Assembly: GCA_031835245.1 (NCBI GenBank) | Contig: JAVKOQ010000023.1 | Location: 101,001-165,000, forward strand | Direction of reading: 5' to 3' | DNA length: 64,000 bases | Source of the DNA: Balamuthia mandrillaris | Taxonomy: Eukaryota; Discosea; Longamoebia; Balamuthiidae | Shown here: one piece after another, positions 1 to 7,758 of the stretch | Layout of the letters: every line of letters starts with the position of its first letter | Numbering within the stretch: the first letter of the stretch is position 1 | Made by a program: the position numbers and the translations under genes | Notes under the pieces: model-generated | Database searches by the model: none | The model's input: only the letters and a program-made list of their open reading frames with translations | Told to the model about the DNA's origin: nothing

Positions 1-60
1 TTTAATTGCTGATTCCTGTTGCAACACGGTATTAGAAGCAAGAAGAAGGAGAAAAAGAGG

Positions 61-261
61 ATGGAAGGAAGGAAGGAAGGAAGGAAGGAAGGAAGGAAGG
101 AAGGAAGGAAGGAAGGAAGGAAGGAAGGAAGGAAGGAAGGAAGGAAGGAAGGAAGGAAGGAAGGGAAGGAAGGAAGGAAGGAAGGAAGGAAGGAAGGAAG
201 GAAGGGAAGGAAGGAAGGAAGGAAGGAAGGAAGGAAGGAAGGAAGGAAGGAAGGAAGGAAG
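61..261. repeat. (GGAA)n microsatellite
   Basis: About 200 bp of almost pure GGAA/GAAG repeat with a few GGGAA interruptions, running into GAAGAACAA repeats up to about 300. It lies where the next CYP51 intron would be (that gene is on the minus strand), so it would be transcribed as a pyrimidine-rich TTCC tract. Its apparent open frames are repeat artefacts. Confidence 0.9.
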
Positions 262-365
262 AACAAGAAGAAGGAAGAAGAACAAGAACAAGAACAAGAA
301 GAATAAGAACGAAAGCCACAAAGAGCAAAAAAAAAACACAGAGAAAAAACAGCAGATATCAAAAC

Positions 366-833
366 CTGTGCCACAAGTCCGCTCCATAAACCACATTCGG
401 TCCAAAAATGGGCACAGAGAACTGGTAAGGCTCATCCTGGCTCAACTCTTTGTCGCTTTTGGCAAAGAAGGGGACGTGGGCCTCCGGTCCCACAAGGAAA
501 GTGAGCCTCTTACCGAAGAGCTTCAAAGTGAAGATCTCTCCTTTCTGCTTGTAGACTTGAGTGGCGTATTGCAACGGGCCGGAAGCAAAGTTGAGCCCAA
601 CGCCAACGAACGGAATCCAGCCGGAGACAATCGGCGGTAGCTGAGAGAGAGAGAGGTGAGAAGTTACAGAAAGAAAGGAGGAGCGACAACCAAACCTTTT
701 GGTTTGTGTTTTTGTACCGCCGGAAGAGAAAGAAAGCGGTTAGGAGCAACAATGTGGGGAGTAATGCCACCTGTAATGGAGGAAGTCCCCCCTCCAGGAG
801 CGACTCTTGCAACAGTCCTGTTGTGTGGTTCAT
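366..833 (-). CDS. CYP51: Lanosterol/sterol 14-alpha-demethylase (CYP51), first two exons only
   Basis: Partial gene reading off the left edge. Exon 1 is 833-696 (46 codons with a hydrophobic N-terminal anchor rich in Leu and Ala, ending in RRYKN). Exon 2 is 640-366, entered after a CT-rich acceptor and left at a GTTTTG donor. Exon 2 holds the conserved N-terminal block of CYP51: PPIVSGWIPFVGVG, then KGEIFTLKLFGKRLTFLVGPEA, SQDEPYQFSVPIFGPNVVY. These match the beta-sheet 1 and B-helix region of CYP51, the ER cytochrome P450 that removes the 14-alpha methyl group in sterol synthesis. The haem-binding Cys region lies outside the window, so completeness cannot be judged. The family call rests on motif recognition and is strong; the exact donor at 366 is inferred. 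Confidence 0.85.
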
Positions 834-1113: not shown

Positions 1114-4100
1114 TCAGGATGGAGCCTCCCTGGAAGGAAACAACGTCCGAAACTTTGCAGCGGTCTTGGTCTTGCTCACCGCCCCTCCCTTCAAGCTCAT
1201 GCTCTTTGTTCTTCCAAGACTAACTATCCGCTGCTGTTGTTGCTGCTGCTGAAGATCACAACCGCAATTCATCATCATCGTCGAGGCACAGATGGGAGTG
1301 TAACTTCGTAACTTACAAACGCTGCTTCGGGACATATGTTTGATGTTCTTTGCCACCACTTCGGCATGTCTCTCCGCGTTGAATGCAAGTTTCTCTTCGG
1401 AAATCCAAACGCTTTGTGCAGACATGGATGAGAAAGACAACGATCTTGACAAGCCTCCAAGAGTGATCCTTCGAAAGGAAGCAGAAGGAGAAGAAGAAGA
1501 TGACGACGACGACAAAGAAGAGGAGGAGGTTTCTAAAGGAGGAGAAGATAGTGATGGTTGACTTGATCTCTGTTTTCGTCTGCGATAACGATGCATGGAA
1601 CCGGATGATAACGTCCGAGACCGTGTGACGAAAGTGGCAGAGGAACTGTCATAGGTGAATGAAGAGGACGATGAAGGAGAAGAAGAAAACAGTGAGGAAG
1701 ATGAAGGAGGTAAACATAGCGTTTCTATGCTAACGATGTCTCCCAGAGCAAAGACATTTGGCATGCCGCCCACCTGGAAGAAAGGATTGACGCGAACTTC
1801 TCCTCGCTCGTTCAACGCGGAGGCAAAGAGTTGCGAGGCAGAGCGGCGAAGAAACTCCGTGTTGGGCGCAAAACCGACTGCAGCATAGATGAGGTCCGCT
1901 GGAACGGATTTTTTGGTGTCTCCTCCGAGCTTGACGAGAACTCGTCGTTCTCGTGTTGGTGGTGATAGCTGTGGTAGAAAGTGTTGGTGCTGGTCTTCTC
2001 CAAGTTCTCTTTTTGGAGATAGGCCTCCGTCATATTGAATCCTAGGTGAAAGAGGACTCCTCCTCTTCTTCCGCTTTTCCTTGTGCTTCTTCTTCTTCTT
2101 CTTCTTTTTGCCAAGGTGTTTCTCGTCTTCTTCCATTTCTGCTTCTGCTTCTTCTTCTTCTTCTTCTTCTTCTTTGGGTTTGTCTCCACGAGCTGAAATG
2201 GAAGTAGACGACGAAGAGGAAGACGAAGAGGTGGAATCATCGTCATCTGCTTCTTCTTGTTCGGTTTCTTCTAGAGGTTGATGTTGCTGTGCTTGCTCTC
2301 GTTCCTCTTCTTCATAGTCAACAAGTTGCAACAAACATCTACCATCGTTCGTAAGTCCAACCACGAGATGATGAAACAAAAATGTGACGTTGTTCGCAAA
2401 GTGCTTTTGAAAGTGTTGCAACGCAAAAGCGGACGCTGAAGCCGGCATTCGGTGCAATAAGCGAGAACGCGGACAGACCAAAGTGAAGTGTTTGTTGCTG
2501 TAACGCGAAGTCAGCTCTCCGAGAAGTTCTATAGCCGTTGGGCCTCCTCCAACGATGACAATATGTTTGGTTCGTTCGTCGTTCAGAATGTTGGAAGCAT
2601 TGATGATGCTTTCAGCGCTTCTGCAATCTACAATCCTTTTGTCTTGAACTTCTTTGTTGAGAAAATCGGGTCTGTCGTTGCGTTTTTCTTGTTTTTCTTC
2701 GTCTTCTTCTTGTTCTTTCTTCTTCATGTTGTGGTCTTCTCCTTGTTCGTGTTTCTTTTTGGTTTGAAGCTGTTGTTGCTGTTCTTCTTCGATGAGCTGT
2801 GTAAGCTTTTCCAATTGTGTTTGTCTTCTATCTTCGGAAGATGGAGAGGCGATAGGTTCGGAAGATTCAGAGGAAGAAGAGGGCGTAGAGGAAGAGTAGG
2901 AGGACAATCCTAAACTAGCGGCTACGTCGTAACGAGACCCTGTACATATGCAGAGGTAGTTATACCGGAAGCATCTGCCATCCATCAAAATGACTTCCTT
3001 TGAAGTCACGCTCGACACTCCTTTTGCAGTTATATGAGAAAACAACAACTAGAAAGAAAGGGGACAAGAAAGAAAGCAAGAATGCTGAAGGAATAAAGAA
3101 AGAAGCGATACCTTCTTTACAAACCACAACTTCAGTCGATCCCAAATAACTCGTATGCTCCTTTCTCACTCTCTCTAATAGAAAGTTTTGTTGCTGCCGT
3201 TCGTTTATCTCTTTATCGTTATTACTTGTTGACGCTGTTACTGCTGTCGCTAGTTCAATAAAACTCGGAACAAACTCAAAGTAGCTTTTGGTGTCGATGA
3301 GCGTCACGTCCAAGTTTCGTTCTAAACGTTTTGCAATGGTGGAGCCGGCAAAACCGCCGCCTATAATGACCAGCTTCGCCTTCTCCACGAACCGATAGAA
3401 GAAGTAATCGTCCTGAAAGCGCTTATCCTGATCCACCACATGAACGATGATCTTCTTGCGAACGAGCCTGTCGCCGAGTTGAACTGCCTCAGCTCTAGTT
3501 TTGACTTTTGTGTTTCGTAATAACCAGTCGACAGCTTCTGAGGCTGATGGTGGATGATATAACAAAATAAAAGAACAATAAGAAGAAGCCAAAATGAAAA
3601 AAATAATAGAGGAGGGAGGAGGAAGGAGAGAGAACTTACCAACGAAGCAACAAGAATAGGTTTTTAAATGCCACCGTCTACTTTGTACATTGAATCCAGT
3701 TACAGTGTTCATAGCTTTCACGACGAGGTCATGCAAGTGCTGTTGATGAAACATAACACAGTCAACATTGTCTTAAAAACAGAACAGAAGAAAGAGTGGT
3801 ATACCTCGTCACTTGCCATGTAATATTCCAAAGTTCCTTCTTGCTCTTTTTCTTGTTCATTCTTGTTGTTATAGTGGTTGTTGTTACTGGCGAATTCGTT
3901 CTCGTTCTTGTTCTTGTGGATCGTTTGTTCGGAGGAAGAACCTGGCAGAGCAGCAACAGCTTCTTCTGAAGCAGCCTTCTCTTGTGCCAACAGCTCTCGT
4001 TTGTAAGTTTCTAATATTTCCAATATCTCTGCAAAACCTGGTCTCTCTAATAATTGCTACATCAACAAGTGATAAAACCATAACAAACAAGAACGAACCC

Positions 4101-5193
4101 ACCTTCAGGATCTTCTTTCCAACACCGAGTCATAAGGTCACGAAAGACTGGAGGACAGTCGGAAGGAATCACTGGCCGTCTTCCTTCTTTCACAACTTCG
4201 AGCGCGACTTTCAATAGCGATTCTTCTGGATATGGCTCTTGCCTGGAGTAACAGAAACAATGGAAGAGGATGGCAGAGAACGAGGAAAGAGAATGATAAG
4301 AGAAGGAGAAAAGAGAGATGAAAGAGAAGCAGAGAAAGGGAACAGTGTGTACATAGTAACAAGCTCATAAAGAAATACTCCAAACGAGAAAGCGTCGCTT
4401 TTTTGGGAGTAGACGCGATTGACGATGGACTCGGGAGCCATATGCTTGACCGGTCCAAAGTTAGTGCCAGTAACGCCTTGGCCGCCTTCCGCCAAAGCCA
4501 AGCGCGAGAGACCAAAGTCTGAAACCATCGCCACCAAGTTACCATCCAACAGAAAGTTACGAGCCGCCAAGTCGCTATGTGCAATAAAGGAGTGAGGTCA
4601 TTCCATTTTCTTAAAAATCTTTCTCACTCTTTTCTTGTTCTCTTTTTCTCTCTCTCTTCTCTGTCCGCTCTATTCCTTCATTCCTTCTTTCCATTTGCTT
4701 CTCTATGTTTCTCTATGCTTCTCTCTCTTTGTTTTGTTTTAAGGCGTTTCTGTACCGATGAACGATGTGTTCGCAATGCGTGTGAAACACTCCGGCAGCT
4801 GCATCACGAGCGAACCCAACTCTGGTCAGCCAATCCACATTGGGATGGGCCTTGAGGTAGTCGTGAATGCTGCCGTTGCGATGATAGGGTGATACCAAAC
4901 ATACGTTTGGTGGTTTTGTACATACACCTTTGTTTTAAAAAAGAAAGGAGAGGACGGGAGGATGAGTGAAGAACGGGAGATAGGGGAAGCGAAGCGAGAT
5001 GATGAGAAGAGAGTGAAGAAACAAGAGATGAGAGAACAACAGAACAAAAGCGAACAGAAGCGATAAGAGAAAGAGAAGAAAGAACCAATCGAACGAACCT
5101 ATGGACTCCAATACATTGGGATGACTGCCTAAGGAACTGTTGGTAACAAGAGCACAAGACAAAAAAAAAGAACGGGTTGCTGTTGTTTAGAAG

Positions 5194-5227
<34 letters not shown>

Positions 5228-5427
5228 GAGAACAGAGCAAAAAAAAAACATTACGCCATGAGACTAGCCTCCCTCCGGATCTGCTCCAACTCCACCTCGG
5301 TAATGCGAACCAGGTTCAGCCTCTTCACCGCCACCTGTGCTCCTCTCCACGTCGCTCTGTAGACCGTCCCAAAAGCTCCTCTGTATTATTGTTTTAACAT
5401 GTTGCAGAAGCCCAGGAGAGAGGAGAG

Positions 5428-5465
<38 letters not shown>

Positions 5466-5799
5466 AAGAAACCGACCGGCCGATCGGTTCGTTGTCAAAC
5501 TGTATTTCGGAAAAGTCTATTTCGCGGTGAGGATACATCTGTCCGAACGACAGAGAGAAAGGCAGTCCTAAAGAGGGTGCCCGTGTGGTCCGCGTGGCGT
5601 GGTTTTCCTCCGGAGAAGCAGCGGAGGCGGAGGAGGAGGCGGTTTGTAAGTAAGGTGAAACGATGAGGCCACCGCCTTCTCGGTTGCTGTCCTCCTCCTC
5701 GTTCAGCAAAAGTGAGTCCTCAAAGTAGGTGGCCAACGCGGCATCGTTCAGGTCGAGGGAGGCGGAACCGAGGGGAGCCTCCTCCACCTCTCTCTGCAT
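1114..5799 (-). CDS. Tyrosine-kinase-like kinase - DEP - FAD/NAD(P) oxidoreductase (AIFM2/FSP1-like) fusion
   Basis: Ten exons: 5799-5477, 5380-5255, 5136-5099, 4927-4756, 4574-4353, 4242-4103, 4046-3805, 3739-3640, 3543-3112, 3020-1114; 3702 nt, about 1233 aa, phases consistent throughout. Residues ~105-355 are a protein kinase: GRGAFGTV loop, VAVK lysine (~127), HRDLAARN catalytic loop (~219-226), SDFGLSR, then APES and a DAFSFGV helix F. Residues ~422-506 are a DEP domain (HLHDLVV, EAVDWLL, AVQLGDRL, DDYFFYRF). From ~507 comes a two-dinucleotide-binding oxidoreductase: VIIGGGFAG, a CTGS strand, a second IVIVGGGPTAIELLGE (~755) and FALGDIV, as in AIFM2/FSP1 and type II NADH dehydrogenases. 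Long Ser, Glu and Lys tracts interrupt the C-terminal half. The fusion rests on unbroken splice phase across both domain borders. A mis-joined pair of genes is the main alternative, but there is no stop or promoter-sized gap between 3048 and 5099. Confidence 0.75.
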
Positions 5800-6513: not shown

Positions 6514-7758
6514 ATGGGCAAGCACAAGGAAAAGAAGAGCGACAGCGTCACCGACGAGCTTCACCTCACCAAAGAGGTCCACCAGTTTCGCAACTACGGA
6601 GTTAACAAGTATGAGGAGCGCGTGAGGAACAACTACCGCCAGAACCACGTCAACCAGACCTACGCCTTTGCCTCCGAGATGAAGAAGAAGTACTCTCAGC
6701 TCAACACAGGCATTGAGATGAGCATTTGGTTTGTTTTTTTTTTCTTCTTTTTCTGTTTTTTTTTTTTCTTTTTTTTTAACGTTTTTTTTTATTTCCTTCA
6801 AAAATATTCTCTCTTTTTTTTTAAAAAAAAAACCAAAACAAAAGGGAGGCAGCCGAGCTTCTCAATGACATTGTGGATGACTCGGACCCCGACCTGGGCC
6901 TCCCTCAAATCGTCCACTTGTTACAAACCGCAGGTATGGGTCTCTCTTTTTCGTATTCTTTTTCTTTGTTTTCATTTCTTTCTTTTCTTTTCTTTTTTTT
7001 CCCTTTTTTCCGTGTTTCTGTCGACTTTCTGTTTTTCTGTCGACTTTCTGTTTTTGTCGACTATTTCTGTCGACATTCTGCGACATATTTTTGTCGACTC
7101 ACCGCACAACAAACTTTGCAGAGGCCCTTCGTGCCCAATTCCCAGGAGAGGAATACGACTGGCTCCACCTGACCGGCTTCATTCATGACCTTGGCAAGCT
7201 GCTCGCTCATCCCCGCTTCCCTCAATGCTTCAACCAACCCCAATGGGCCGTTGTGGGCGATACCTTCCCGCTCGGCTGCCCCTTCTCCGACTCGATCGTC
7301 TACAGAGAGTACTTTAAGGAAAATCCTGACATGAACGTGAGTGAGTACCAACAATCGGAGAACGGCATCTACTCTGCTGGTTGTGGGCTGGAGAACTTGC
7401 TCATGAGCTGGGGCCACGACGAGTACATGTATCAAGTGTGCGTTGGCAATGGATGCACATTGCCGCCTGAGGGACTTTACATCATCCGTTTTCACTCCTT
7501 CTATCCTTACCATCAGGCCGGAGCCTATGCTCAATTCACCAACGAAACAGATCATGCTATGTTCCCTTGGATAAAGGTTTGTTTTGTTTTTATTTTTCAG
7601 TTGTTTTACACTTTGTGTTAACCACTTCCACATAAAAGGCGTTCCAAAAGTGCGATTTGTATAGCAAGGACGAGGAGTCCAAAATCGATGTGGAGGCGTT
7701 GAAACCCTACTACCAGGGCCTCATCAAGAAGTACTTTCCTGAGAAGCTAAAGTGGTGA
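6514..7758 (+). CDS. MIOX: Myo-inositol oxygenase (MIOX)
   Basis: Four exons: 6514-6728, 6845-6933, 7122-7576, 7639-7758; 879 nt, 292 aa, close to the ~285 aa usual for the family. MIOX is a cytosolic di-iron enzyme that opens myo-inositol to D-glucuronate. Diagnostic stretches: QFRNYGVNKYEERVRNNYRQ near the N terminus, MSIWEAAELLNDIVDDSDPD across the first intron, the metal ligands in HLTGFIHDLGKLL, the block QWAVVGDTFPLGCPF, SWGHDEYMY, and FHSFYPYH; the C terminus ends PEKLKW. The N-terminal 20 residues are Lys-rich and family-unlike. The start is the first ATG after an A-rich leader and keeps the whole domain. Introns are T-rich; the second contains repeats of TTTCTGTCGAC. Confidence 0.95.

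What the first reader, a model, noticed from the sequence alone, without database searches (positions are those of the whole stretch)
1114..5799. Kinase-DEP-AIFM2/FSP1-like oxidoreductase in one gene
Ten exons join in unbroken phase to give a complete tyrosine-kinase-like kinase (GRGAFGTV, HRDLAARN, SDFGLSR), a full DEP domain and a two-Rossmann FAD/NAD(P) oxidoreductase (VIIGGGFAG, IVIVGGGPTAIELLGE, FALGDIV). I know of no described protein with this order. DEP domains dock on membranes or receptors, and FSP1-type enzymes reduce quinones at membranes, so this could be redox enzyme control by phosphorylation in cis, or kinase control by redox state.
Basis: partly seen in the sequence, partly recalled or inferred. 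Interest (0 to 1): 0.88.

Follow-up and report, generated by a model that had tools for sequence, protein, structure and literature searches.

The report
Kinase–DEP–FSP1-like oxidoreductase fusion gene
In the amoeba Balamuthia mandrillaris one gene appears to encode a tyrosine-kinase-like kinase, a DEP domain that may dock to membranes, and an enzyme of the kind that recycles membrane antioxidants, so signalling and redox chemistry may be wired together in a single protein.

Summary
A ten-exon minus-strand gene (5799–1114) encodes 1233 residues: TK-like kinase (104–352), full DEP domain (437–506) and a FAD/NAD(P) oxidoreductase closest to FSP1/AIFM2 among solved structures. The genome is Balamuthia mandrillaris, probably strain ITSON01. 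A diverged second copy (contig C240) keeps all ten exons and splice sites; its 8 coding indels are all multiples of three, and kinase and oxidoreductase core are under purifying selection. In that copy a stop at the exon-8 acceptor closes the frame of an intron-7 start. GenBank holds the C240 product as one 'DEP domain-containing protein'. No transcript was seen here.

The DEP+FSP1 half also occurs without a kinase: in a Balamuthia paralog (C31) and four other proteins. These oxidoreductases form one clade (99/94). Only the Balamuthia gene was found with a kinase too. The kinase is the most constrained part (dN/dS 0.015). The oxidoreductase keeps most tested FSP1 residues but has three low-complexity inserts, GxGxxA and a shorter C-terminal hairpin.

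My favoured reading is a membrane-docked kinase carrying a redox module. Activity and direction of control are inferred. New variant of a known kind; interest 0.5.

The parts
5477..5799 (-). exon 1: start ATG, N-terminal region, start of kinase
   Evidence: aligned in C240 (91.7%, indels 3, 12, 9)
5255..5380 (-). exon 2: kinase Gly-loop end, VAVK lysine, alpha-C
5099..5136 (-). exon 3: kinase
4756..4927 (-). exon 4: kinase, up to HR of HRD
4353..4574 (-). exon 5: kinase DLAARN, DFG, MAPE
4103..4242 (-). exon 6: kinase C-lobe
3805..4046 (-). exon 7: end of kinase, linker with TLEYYM motif
   Evidence: no indel against C240
3740..3804 (-). intron 7 (kinase/DEP join, 65 nt)
   Evidence: in the C240 copy the exon-8 frame read backwards meets TAG at the acceptor
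3640..3739 (-). exon 8: DEP N-terminal part
3112..3543 (-). exon 9: DEP C-terminal part running within a few residues into the FAD-binding Rossmann fold
1114..3020 (-). exon 10: rest of oxidoreductase (NAD motif 2515-2556, GD motif 1735-1752), low-complexity inserts, C-terminal domain, stop
2605..2895 (-). low-complexity insert 1 (about aa 641-737), dN/dS 1.35
1927..2211 (-). low-complexity insert 2 (about aa 869-963)
1396..1713 (-). low-complexity insert 3 (about aa 1035-1140)

Best explanation
A real single Balamuthia mandrillaris gene for a three-module protein: N-terminal TK-like kinase, DEP domain, C-terminal FSP1/AIFM2-type NAD(P)H oxidoreductase. Shown: the reading frame and its conservation in a second copy, the domains, the kinship of the parts, selection on kinase and enzyme core, and that the DEP+FSP1 unit exists without a kinase. 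Inferred: that one transcript carries it; that the DEP domain docks the protein at a membrane; that the directly fused FSP1 module binds FAD and NAD(P)H and passes electrons to a membrane quinone; that the kinase phosphorylates partners at the same membrane and perhaps itself, the TLEYYM motif before the DEP (kept in both copies) being one candidate site. Because the kinase is by far the most constrained part between the two copies, I favour kinase output with the DEP+FSP1 unit as membrane anchor and redox input, over a quinone reductase controlled by its kinase.
For: Exons and domains. Second copy with conserved frame and splice sites, collinear flanks, GenBank protein identical to it; that annotation may be the RNA-seq-aided one of ITSON01 (PMC10471605; my inference). 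dN/dS kinase 0.015 (19 synonymous, 1 other change), pooled oxidoreductase core 0.133. In-frame TAG against an intronic start. DEP+FSP1 without kinase on C31 and in others. The six DEP-bearing oxidoreductases plus P0099 form one clade, 99/94. FSP1 is the best solved relative of the oxidoreductase half, 2e-52; next kind 5e-23 (4NWZ, named NDH-2 in a passage). Equivalents of human FSP1 E156, E160, D41, G244 and D285, reported as needed in passages of PMC10643123, are kept. At least 72 SH2 matches in the uncollapsed genome show that phosphotyrosine readers exist.
Against: No transcript or protein was seen here. Kinase activity, substrate residue type, DEP membrane binding and quinone reduction are untested. 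The kinase activation segment (SDFG to APE) has no tyrosine. Third Gly of the NAD motif is Ala, the residue after GD is Ile where FSP1 has C286 (also Ile in P0003-P0005), and the C-terminal domain is about 7 residues shorter than in its nearest relatives. DEP dN/dS is 0.39 on only 5 changes. The enzyme's end branch (1.12) is no longer than those of P0005 (1.12) or P0006 (1.25), so the tree does not show that it is degenerating. Differing constraint does not by itself tell which module controls which.
Confidence: 0.48

Rival explanations
1. The same single protein, but the enzyme is the output: a membrane FSP1-type quinone reductase whose activity or location is switched by its own kinase in cis.
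For: Most residues reported as needed in FSP1 are kept; oxidoreductase core under purifying selection; its end branch is like those of other clade members; DEP+FSP1 without kinase exists as a stand-alone enzyme candidate.
Against: Kinase far more constrained than the enzyme; GxGxxA and a shortened C-terminal hairpin, the region that forms the quinone pocket and dimer in FSP1 (PMC10516921 passages).
Confidence: 0.24
2. The oxidoreductase is a non-catalytic or changed-specificity scaffold: it holds FAD or NAD(P)H but no longer reduces quinones, and only anchors the kinase.
For: GxGxxA in place of GxGxxG, LAQ to LAF, loss of about 7 residues in the C-terminal domain; three low-complexity inserts.
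Against: The 28 columns invariant in the nine-row alignment, which includes it, hold both NAD-motif glutamates and the GD motif; dN/dS 0.133 in the core; branch length not unusual for the clade.
Confidence: 0.2
3. Two genes: a kinase ending after exon 7 and a DEP+oxidoreductase starting near 3700.
For: A DEP+FSP1 paralog without kinase exists; in the C22 copy an ATG in intron 7 is in frame with exon 8.
Against: In C240 that frame is closed by TAG at the acceptor; exon 7 has no stop before its donor in either copy; only 65 nt separate the exons; GenBank annotation joins them. A start at Met431 (window 3712-3710) would cut off the stretch before the DEP core that aligns with its relatives.
Confidence: 0.05
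4. Assembly or gene-model artefact.
For: The assembly is uncollapsed and seems to hold a bacterial contig.
Against: Two diverged contigs carry the same exons and collinear flanks.
Confidence: 0.01

Closest known systems
FSP1 / AIFM2 (NAD(P)H:quinone oxidoreductase)
   Same: Best solved relative; equivalents of E156, E160, D41, G244 and D285 kept
   Different: No N-terminal MGxxxS motif; joined behind kinase and DEP; three low-complexity inserts; GxGxxA; no C286 equivalent; shorter C-terminal domain
Balamuthia C31 paralog P0003 ('Pyridine nucleotidedisulfide oxidoreductase family protein')
   Same: DEP directly followed by the FSP1-like enzyme; 45% identical over 103 query residues across the DEP/FAD join
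   Different: 480 aa, no kinase, no large inserts; an actin-related-looking gene (by eye) lies upstream
Amoebozoan tyrosine kinases (22 reported in Acanthamoeba castellanii, PMC4053784 passages)
   Same: HRDLAARN loop, PVK-MAPE; nearest kinase in this genome outside the two copies is C122/C256, 48% identical
   Different: No tyrosine in the activation segment; joined to DEP+FSP1; C122/C256 shows no match to the DEP or oxidoreductase part within the 10 kb fetched
DEP-DEP-kinase proteins P0007, P0164 (sources jgi, lgn; AGC-type is my reading)
   Same: DEP and kinase in one protein
   Different: Two DEP domains before the kinase, a different kinase kind (Pkinase_C over cut-off in P0007 only), no oxidoreductase
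RGS + FSP1-like proteins P0023, P0033, P0035
   Same: FSP1-like enzyme joined to a G-protein-signalling domain
   Different: RGS instead of DEP, no kinase; in P0023 the RGS match lies inside the oxidoreductase; P0033 and P0035 are close kin

Membership tests
FSP1/AIFM2 | Sequence closest to FSP1 among solved oxidoreductases | tested here: met
   window part, FSP1 best at 4.7e-10; four-protein profile without the window protein, FSP1 2e-52; next kind 5e-23
FSP1/AIFM2 | NAD motif GXGXXGXE with E156 | tested here: inconclusive
   GGGPTAIE: glutamate kept, third glycine is alanine; motif definition passages
FSP1/AIFM2 | GD motif (D285), G244 and D41 | tested here: met
   FALGDI, AAVGFAPN, LIDTK aligned (short stretches, weak on their own) and; the WXXG motif as such was not tested
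FSP1/AIFM2 | C286 next to GD | tested here: not met
   Ile here and in P0003, P0004, P0005
FSP1/AIFM2 | N-terminal MGXXXS myristoylation motif | tested here: not met
   protein starts MQREVEE
FSP1/AIFM2 | C-terminal domain forming dimer and quinone pocket | tested here: inconclusive
   present but about 7 residues shorter than in P0003 and P0004; K355 equivalent not tested
FSP1/AIFM2 | NAD(P)H-dependent quinone reduction | not testable with these tools
   needs recombinant protein
Tyrosine kinase group | Complete catalytic residues (Gly loop, Lys, Glu, HRD, DFG, APE) | tested here: met
Tyrosine kinase group | Closer to TK than to TKL or Ser/Thr kinases | tested here: inconclusive
   designed SRC-ABL ancestor 5.9e-49 and ABL2 2.6e-43 above the TKL kinase CTR1 at 7e-42, a small gap; no tree made
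Tyrosine kinase group | Phosphorylates tyrosine | not testable with these tools
   needs assay
DEP domain | Full-length Pfam match over cut-off | tested here: met
   82.9 bits, cut-off 32.7, profile 2-72 of 72
DEP+FSP1 clade | Oxidoreductase part groups with other DEP-bearing ones | tested here: met
   clade of 7 rows at 99/94, 6 with Pfam DEP and P0099 without; counting P0099 as non-DEP the label needs 2 changes, not 1

The most novel reading that the evidence does not exclude
A redox-gated tyrosine-kinase-like enzyme: NAD(P)H and quinone binding in a directly fused DEP+FSP1 module changes kinase output at the membrane, so the cell's antioxidant state is read out as phosphorylation in one polypeptide.
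Probability: 0.25. Interest if true: 0.8.

Novelty: new variant of a known kind. Interest (0 to 1): 0.5.

Why it matters
FSP1-type enzymes protect membranes from lipid peroxidation, and how they are controlled is an open question in ferroptosis research (my framing). A natural fusion to a kinase and a DEP domain would be a ready-made test case for direct coupling of phosphorylation and membrane redox chemistry. The DEP+FSP1 clade and the separate RGS+FSP1 proteins suggest that such enzymes were joined more than once to domains of G-protein signalling.

Tried and rejected
Chimeric assembly: rejected, two diverged contigs agree. Separate oxidoreductase gene: disfavoured. Kinase+DEP+FSP1 in other organisms: not found (2 hits at E<=1e-3 among 1484 candidates of about 0.55-1.75 times 1233 aa: the C240 product and a Syncephalis DEP protein), (95 hits among 2472 candidates: 4 with DEP and Pyr_redox_2, none with a kinase as well), or among the 120 listed of 319 hits (5 with DEP and Pyr_redox_2, none with a kinase as well; only 7999 candidates were scored). 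These searches need shared five-residue words, so absence is not proof. Kinase+DEP hits P0007 and P0164 first looked like partial copies but have two DEPs before a different kinase. Nearest kinase kin C122/C256: no DEP or oxidoreductase match of the window protein in the 10 kb fetched, and neither contig is in the DEP list. A possible DEP...kinase gene on C19 and a DEP/kinase pair on C33 were looked at and left unresolved. An extra 3' intron at a GTGAG in exon 10 was considered by eye and dropped: no homologous C-terminus was seen downstream, and the GenBank C240 protein ends as modelled. My first thought that the oxidoreductase sits on an unusually long branch did not hold: it was 1.15 against 1.11 for P0005 and 1.05 for P0099, 1.12 against 1.12 and 1.25 (P0006); I lowered the main reading from 0.50 to 0.48 and raised the first rival from 0.22 to 0.24 for this. 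In one search the label DEP (five rows, P0099 counted apart, P0006 left out) needed 2 changes, and 85 of 500 shuffles did as well, with P0006 in and all other rows as contrast, 0 of 500 did, and with P0099 counted as DEP the group is one clade. Structure prediction: tool switched off, so no fold comparison was made. Literature: searches (15 of 36 listed; 2 of 2; 12 of 56; 1 of 1; 10 of 14; 6 of 129; 8 of 26; none); no listed title or abstract start spoke of a kinase+DEP+FSP1 or DEP+FSP1 protein. Papers: PMC10471605, outline with abstract, sections 4 and 15, part 1 of section 16 and passages; PMC8569187, outline with abstract only; PMC4053784, PMC10516921 and PMC10643123, passages only. The library lacks most subscription journals.
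Full report
What it is. The window lies in a 64.8-Mb, 775-contig genome as C22:101001-165000. A protein search names the organism: the only close hit is a 1230-aa GenBank entry 'DEP domain-containing protein [Balamuthia mandrillaris]' on a 79,226-base contig, the length of contig C240 here. The size is near that of strain ITSON01 (65.2 Mb; but 841 scaffolds there, 775 contigs here; PMC10471605, section 15), whose annotation used RNA-seq reads with Funannotate (section 4). That this is that assembly, and that P0001 comes from that annotation, is an inference.

Gene model. Ten exons on the minus strand (5799-5477, 5380-5255, 5136-5099, 4927-4756, 4574-4353, 4242-4103, 4046-3805, 3739-3640, 3543-3112, 3020-1114), all GT-AG, join to 1233 codons plus stop. 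Introns are 56-181 nt. Pfam finds PK_Tyr_Ser-Thr at 104-352 (2.7e-63), DEP at 437-506 (1.5e-23) and Pyr_redox_2 (5.3e-28, three stretches).

Independent copy. C240 holds a second, collinear copy; flanking stretches on both sides also align (78% and 83%). Exons are 91.7-99.0% identical, introns 72.7-94.7%, gaps aside. All 8 exon indels are multiples of three; 7 of 9 introns have an indel that is not (introns 5 and 6 do not). Substitutions fall 27/24/79 on codon positions 1/2/3. The translated C240 model equals GenBank P0001 letter for letter. Nei-Gojobori dN/dS by part: N-terminus 0.31, kinase 0.015 (19 synonymous, 1 other change), linker 0.36, DEP 0.39 (2 and 3 changes, too few to weigh), FAD part 0.24, NAD part 0.09, core 964-1034 0.07, C-terminus 0.13, pooled oxidoreductase core 0.133, low-complexity stretches 1.35, 0.15 and 0.21, whole 0.181. 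Whether C22 and C240 are alleles or duplicates was not settled.

One gene or two. Only 65 nt lie between exon 7 and exon 8. In the C22 copy the intron has an ATG in frame with exon 8; in C240 the exon-8 frame read backwards meets TAG at the acceptor, so a start there cannot give the DEP protein in that copy. A start at the next ATG (Met431, window 3712-3710) would remove the stretch before the DEP core that aligns with its relatives. No transcript was examined; this remains the main gap.

The DEP+FSP1 unit. The C31 paralog (498 aa in my model; 480 aa in GenBank P0003) is DEP+oxidoreductase with no kinase; its upstream neighbour on the same strand resembles an actin-related protein (my reading of the frames). 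P0004 and P0098 (source jgi, probably metagenomic) and P0005 and P0006 (EukProt, species not shown) have DEP plus Pyr_redox_2 over cut-off. With P0001 and P0003 that is 6 proteins seen. In these the DEP end and the FAD Rossmann strand are only a few residues apart (for all but P0098). In a tree of the oxidoreductase part alone (30 rows, that is 28 of the 208 proteins held, the window part and a C24 frame), the window part, P0003, P0004, P0005, P0006, P0098 and P0099 (no Pfam DEP; its N-terminus looks like a worn DEP by eye) form one clade at 99/94; an earlier tree without P0006 gave 98/93. The window row is the outermost of the clade (95/82), with an end branch of 1.12, like P0005 (1.12) and P0006 (1.25) and longer than P0003 (0.37). 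One gain of the kinase in the Balamuthia gene is the simplest history; an early gain with later loss is not excluded.

Is the enzyme competent. The window part's best solved relatives are FSP1 chains (4.7e-10). The profile of four DEP+FSP1 proteins gives FSP1 2e-52, the next oxidoreductase kind 5e-23 (4NWZ, called NDH-2 in a passage), and for the DEP half DEPTOR 5e-30. Passages of PMC10643123 name GXGXXGXE, WXXG (G244), GD (D285), D41, C286, E160 and K355. Here both glutamates and the G244, D285 and D41 equivalents are kept; the third glycine of the NAD motif is alanine; C286 is isoleucine, as in P0003-P0005; K355 was not tested. The C-terminal domain, which makes the dimer and quinone pocket in FSP1 (PMC10516921 passages), is about 7 residues shorter than in P0003. 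So FAD and NAD(P)H binding is likely, quinone reduction plausible but less sure.

The kinase. All catalytic residues are present; the activation segment has no tyrosine. Single-domain PDB hits lean to tyrosine kinases (designed SRC-ABL ancestor 5.9e-49, ABL2 2.6e-43) with the TKL kinase CTR1 close behind (7e-42). HRDLAARN and the PVK...APE segment favour tyrosine kinases; that is a motif reading recalled from general knowledge. The nearest other kinase in the genome is 48% identical, on C122/C256 (141 of 866 candidates scored), with no DEP or oxidoreductase match in the stretch fetched. The genome has at least 72 SH2 matches, both haplotype copies counted. Acanthamoeba castellanii is reported to have 22 tyrosine kinases and 48 SH2 proteins (PMC4053784 passages).

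How it most likely works. Shown: one open, selected three-module reading frame in two copies, and a DEP+FSP1 unit that also exists alone. Inferred: one transcript, DEP docking, electron transfer, phosphorylation, and coupling. The constraint pattern makes me favour kinase output with a redox/anchor module (0.48) over enzyme output under kinase control (0.24) or a non-catalytic scaffold (0.2). The linker motif TLEYYM, kept in both copies, is a candidate autophosphorylation site and nothing more.

Known or new. Each module is known. The DEP+FSP1 clade and the three-module order were not found described in the paper searches listed under Tried and rejected, and the three-module order was found only in Balamuthia in the protein searches, within their limits. 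I file it as a new variant of a known kind.

Noticed in passing
G000 contig C3 (L035; C3:419500-421000): Intronless dihydrolipoyl-dehydrogenase-looking frame (by eye; Pyr_redox_2 match) with 2 in-frame TGA read as Trp under code 4; the contig looks like a mycoplasma-type bacterium, perhaps a culture contaminant.
   Followed up: partly
P0023, P0033, P0035: RGS domain joined to FSP1-like oxidoreductases in a EukProt entry and in Umbelopsis fungi: a second signalling domain fused to this enzyme kind.
   Followed up: partly
L036 2561-6858 (C19): A DEP match followed about 3 kb later on the same strand by a TK-like kinase; could be a DEP...kinase gene of reverse order.
   Followed up: partly
L023, L024, L025, L026 (C24, C261, C136, C264): FSP1-like oxidoreductase frames with no DEP match; the C24 frame has a hydrophobic N-terminal stretch.
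   Followed up: partly
window about 1-830 (minus) and 6520-7740 (plus): Neighbour genes that look like a CYP51-type P450 and a myo-inositol oxygenase (recalled likeness, not searched).
   Followed up: no
window about 60-260: Long CCTT repeat, apparently in an intron of the P450-like gene (by eye).
   Followed up: no
L022 4669-7486 (C31): Two neighbouring actin-related-looking genes in a row upstream of the DEP+FSP1 paralog (by eye).
   Followed up: no
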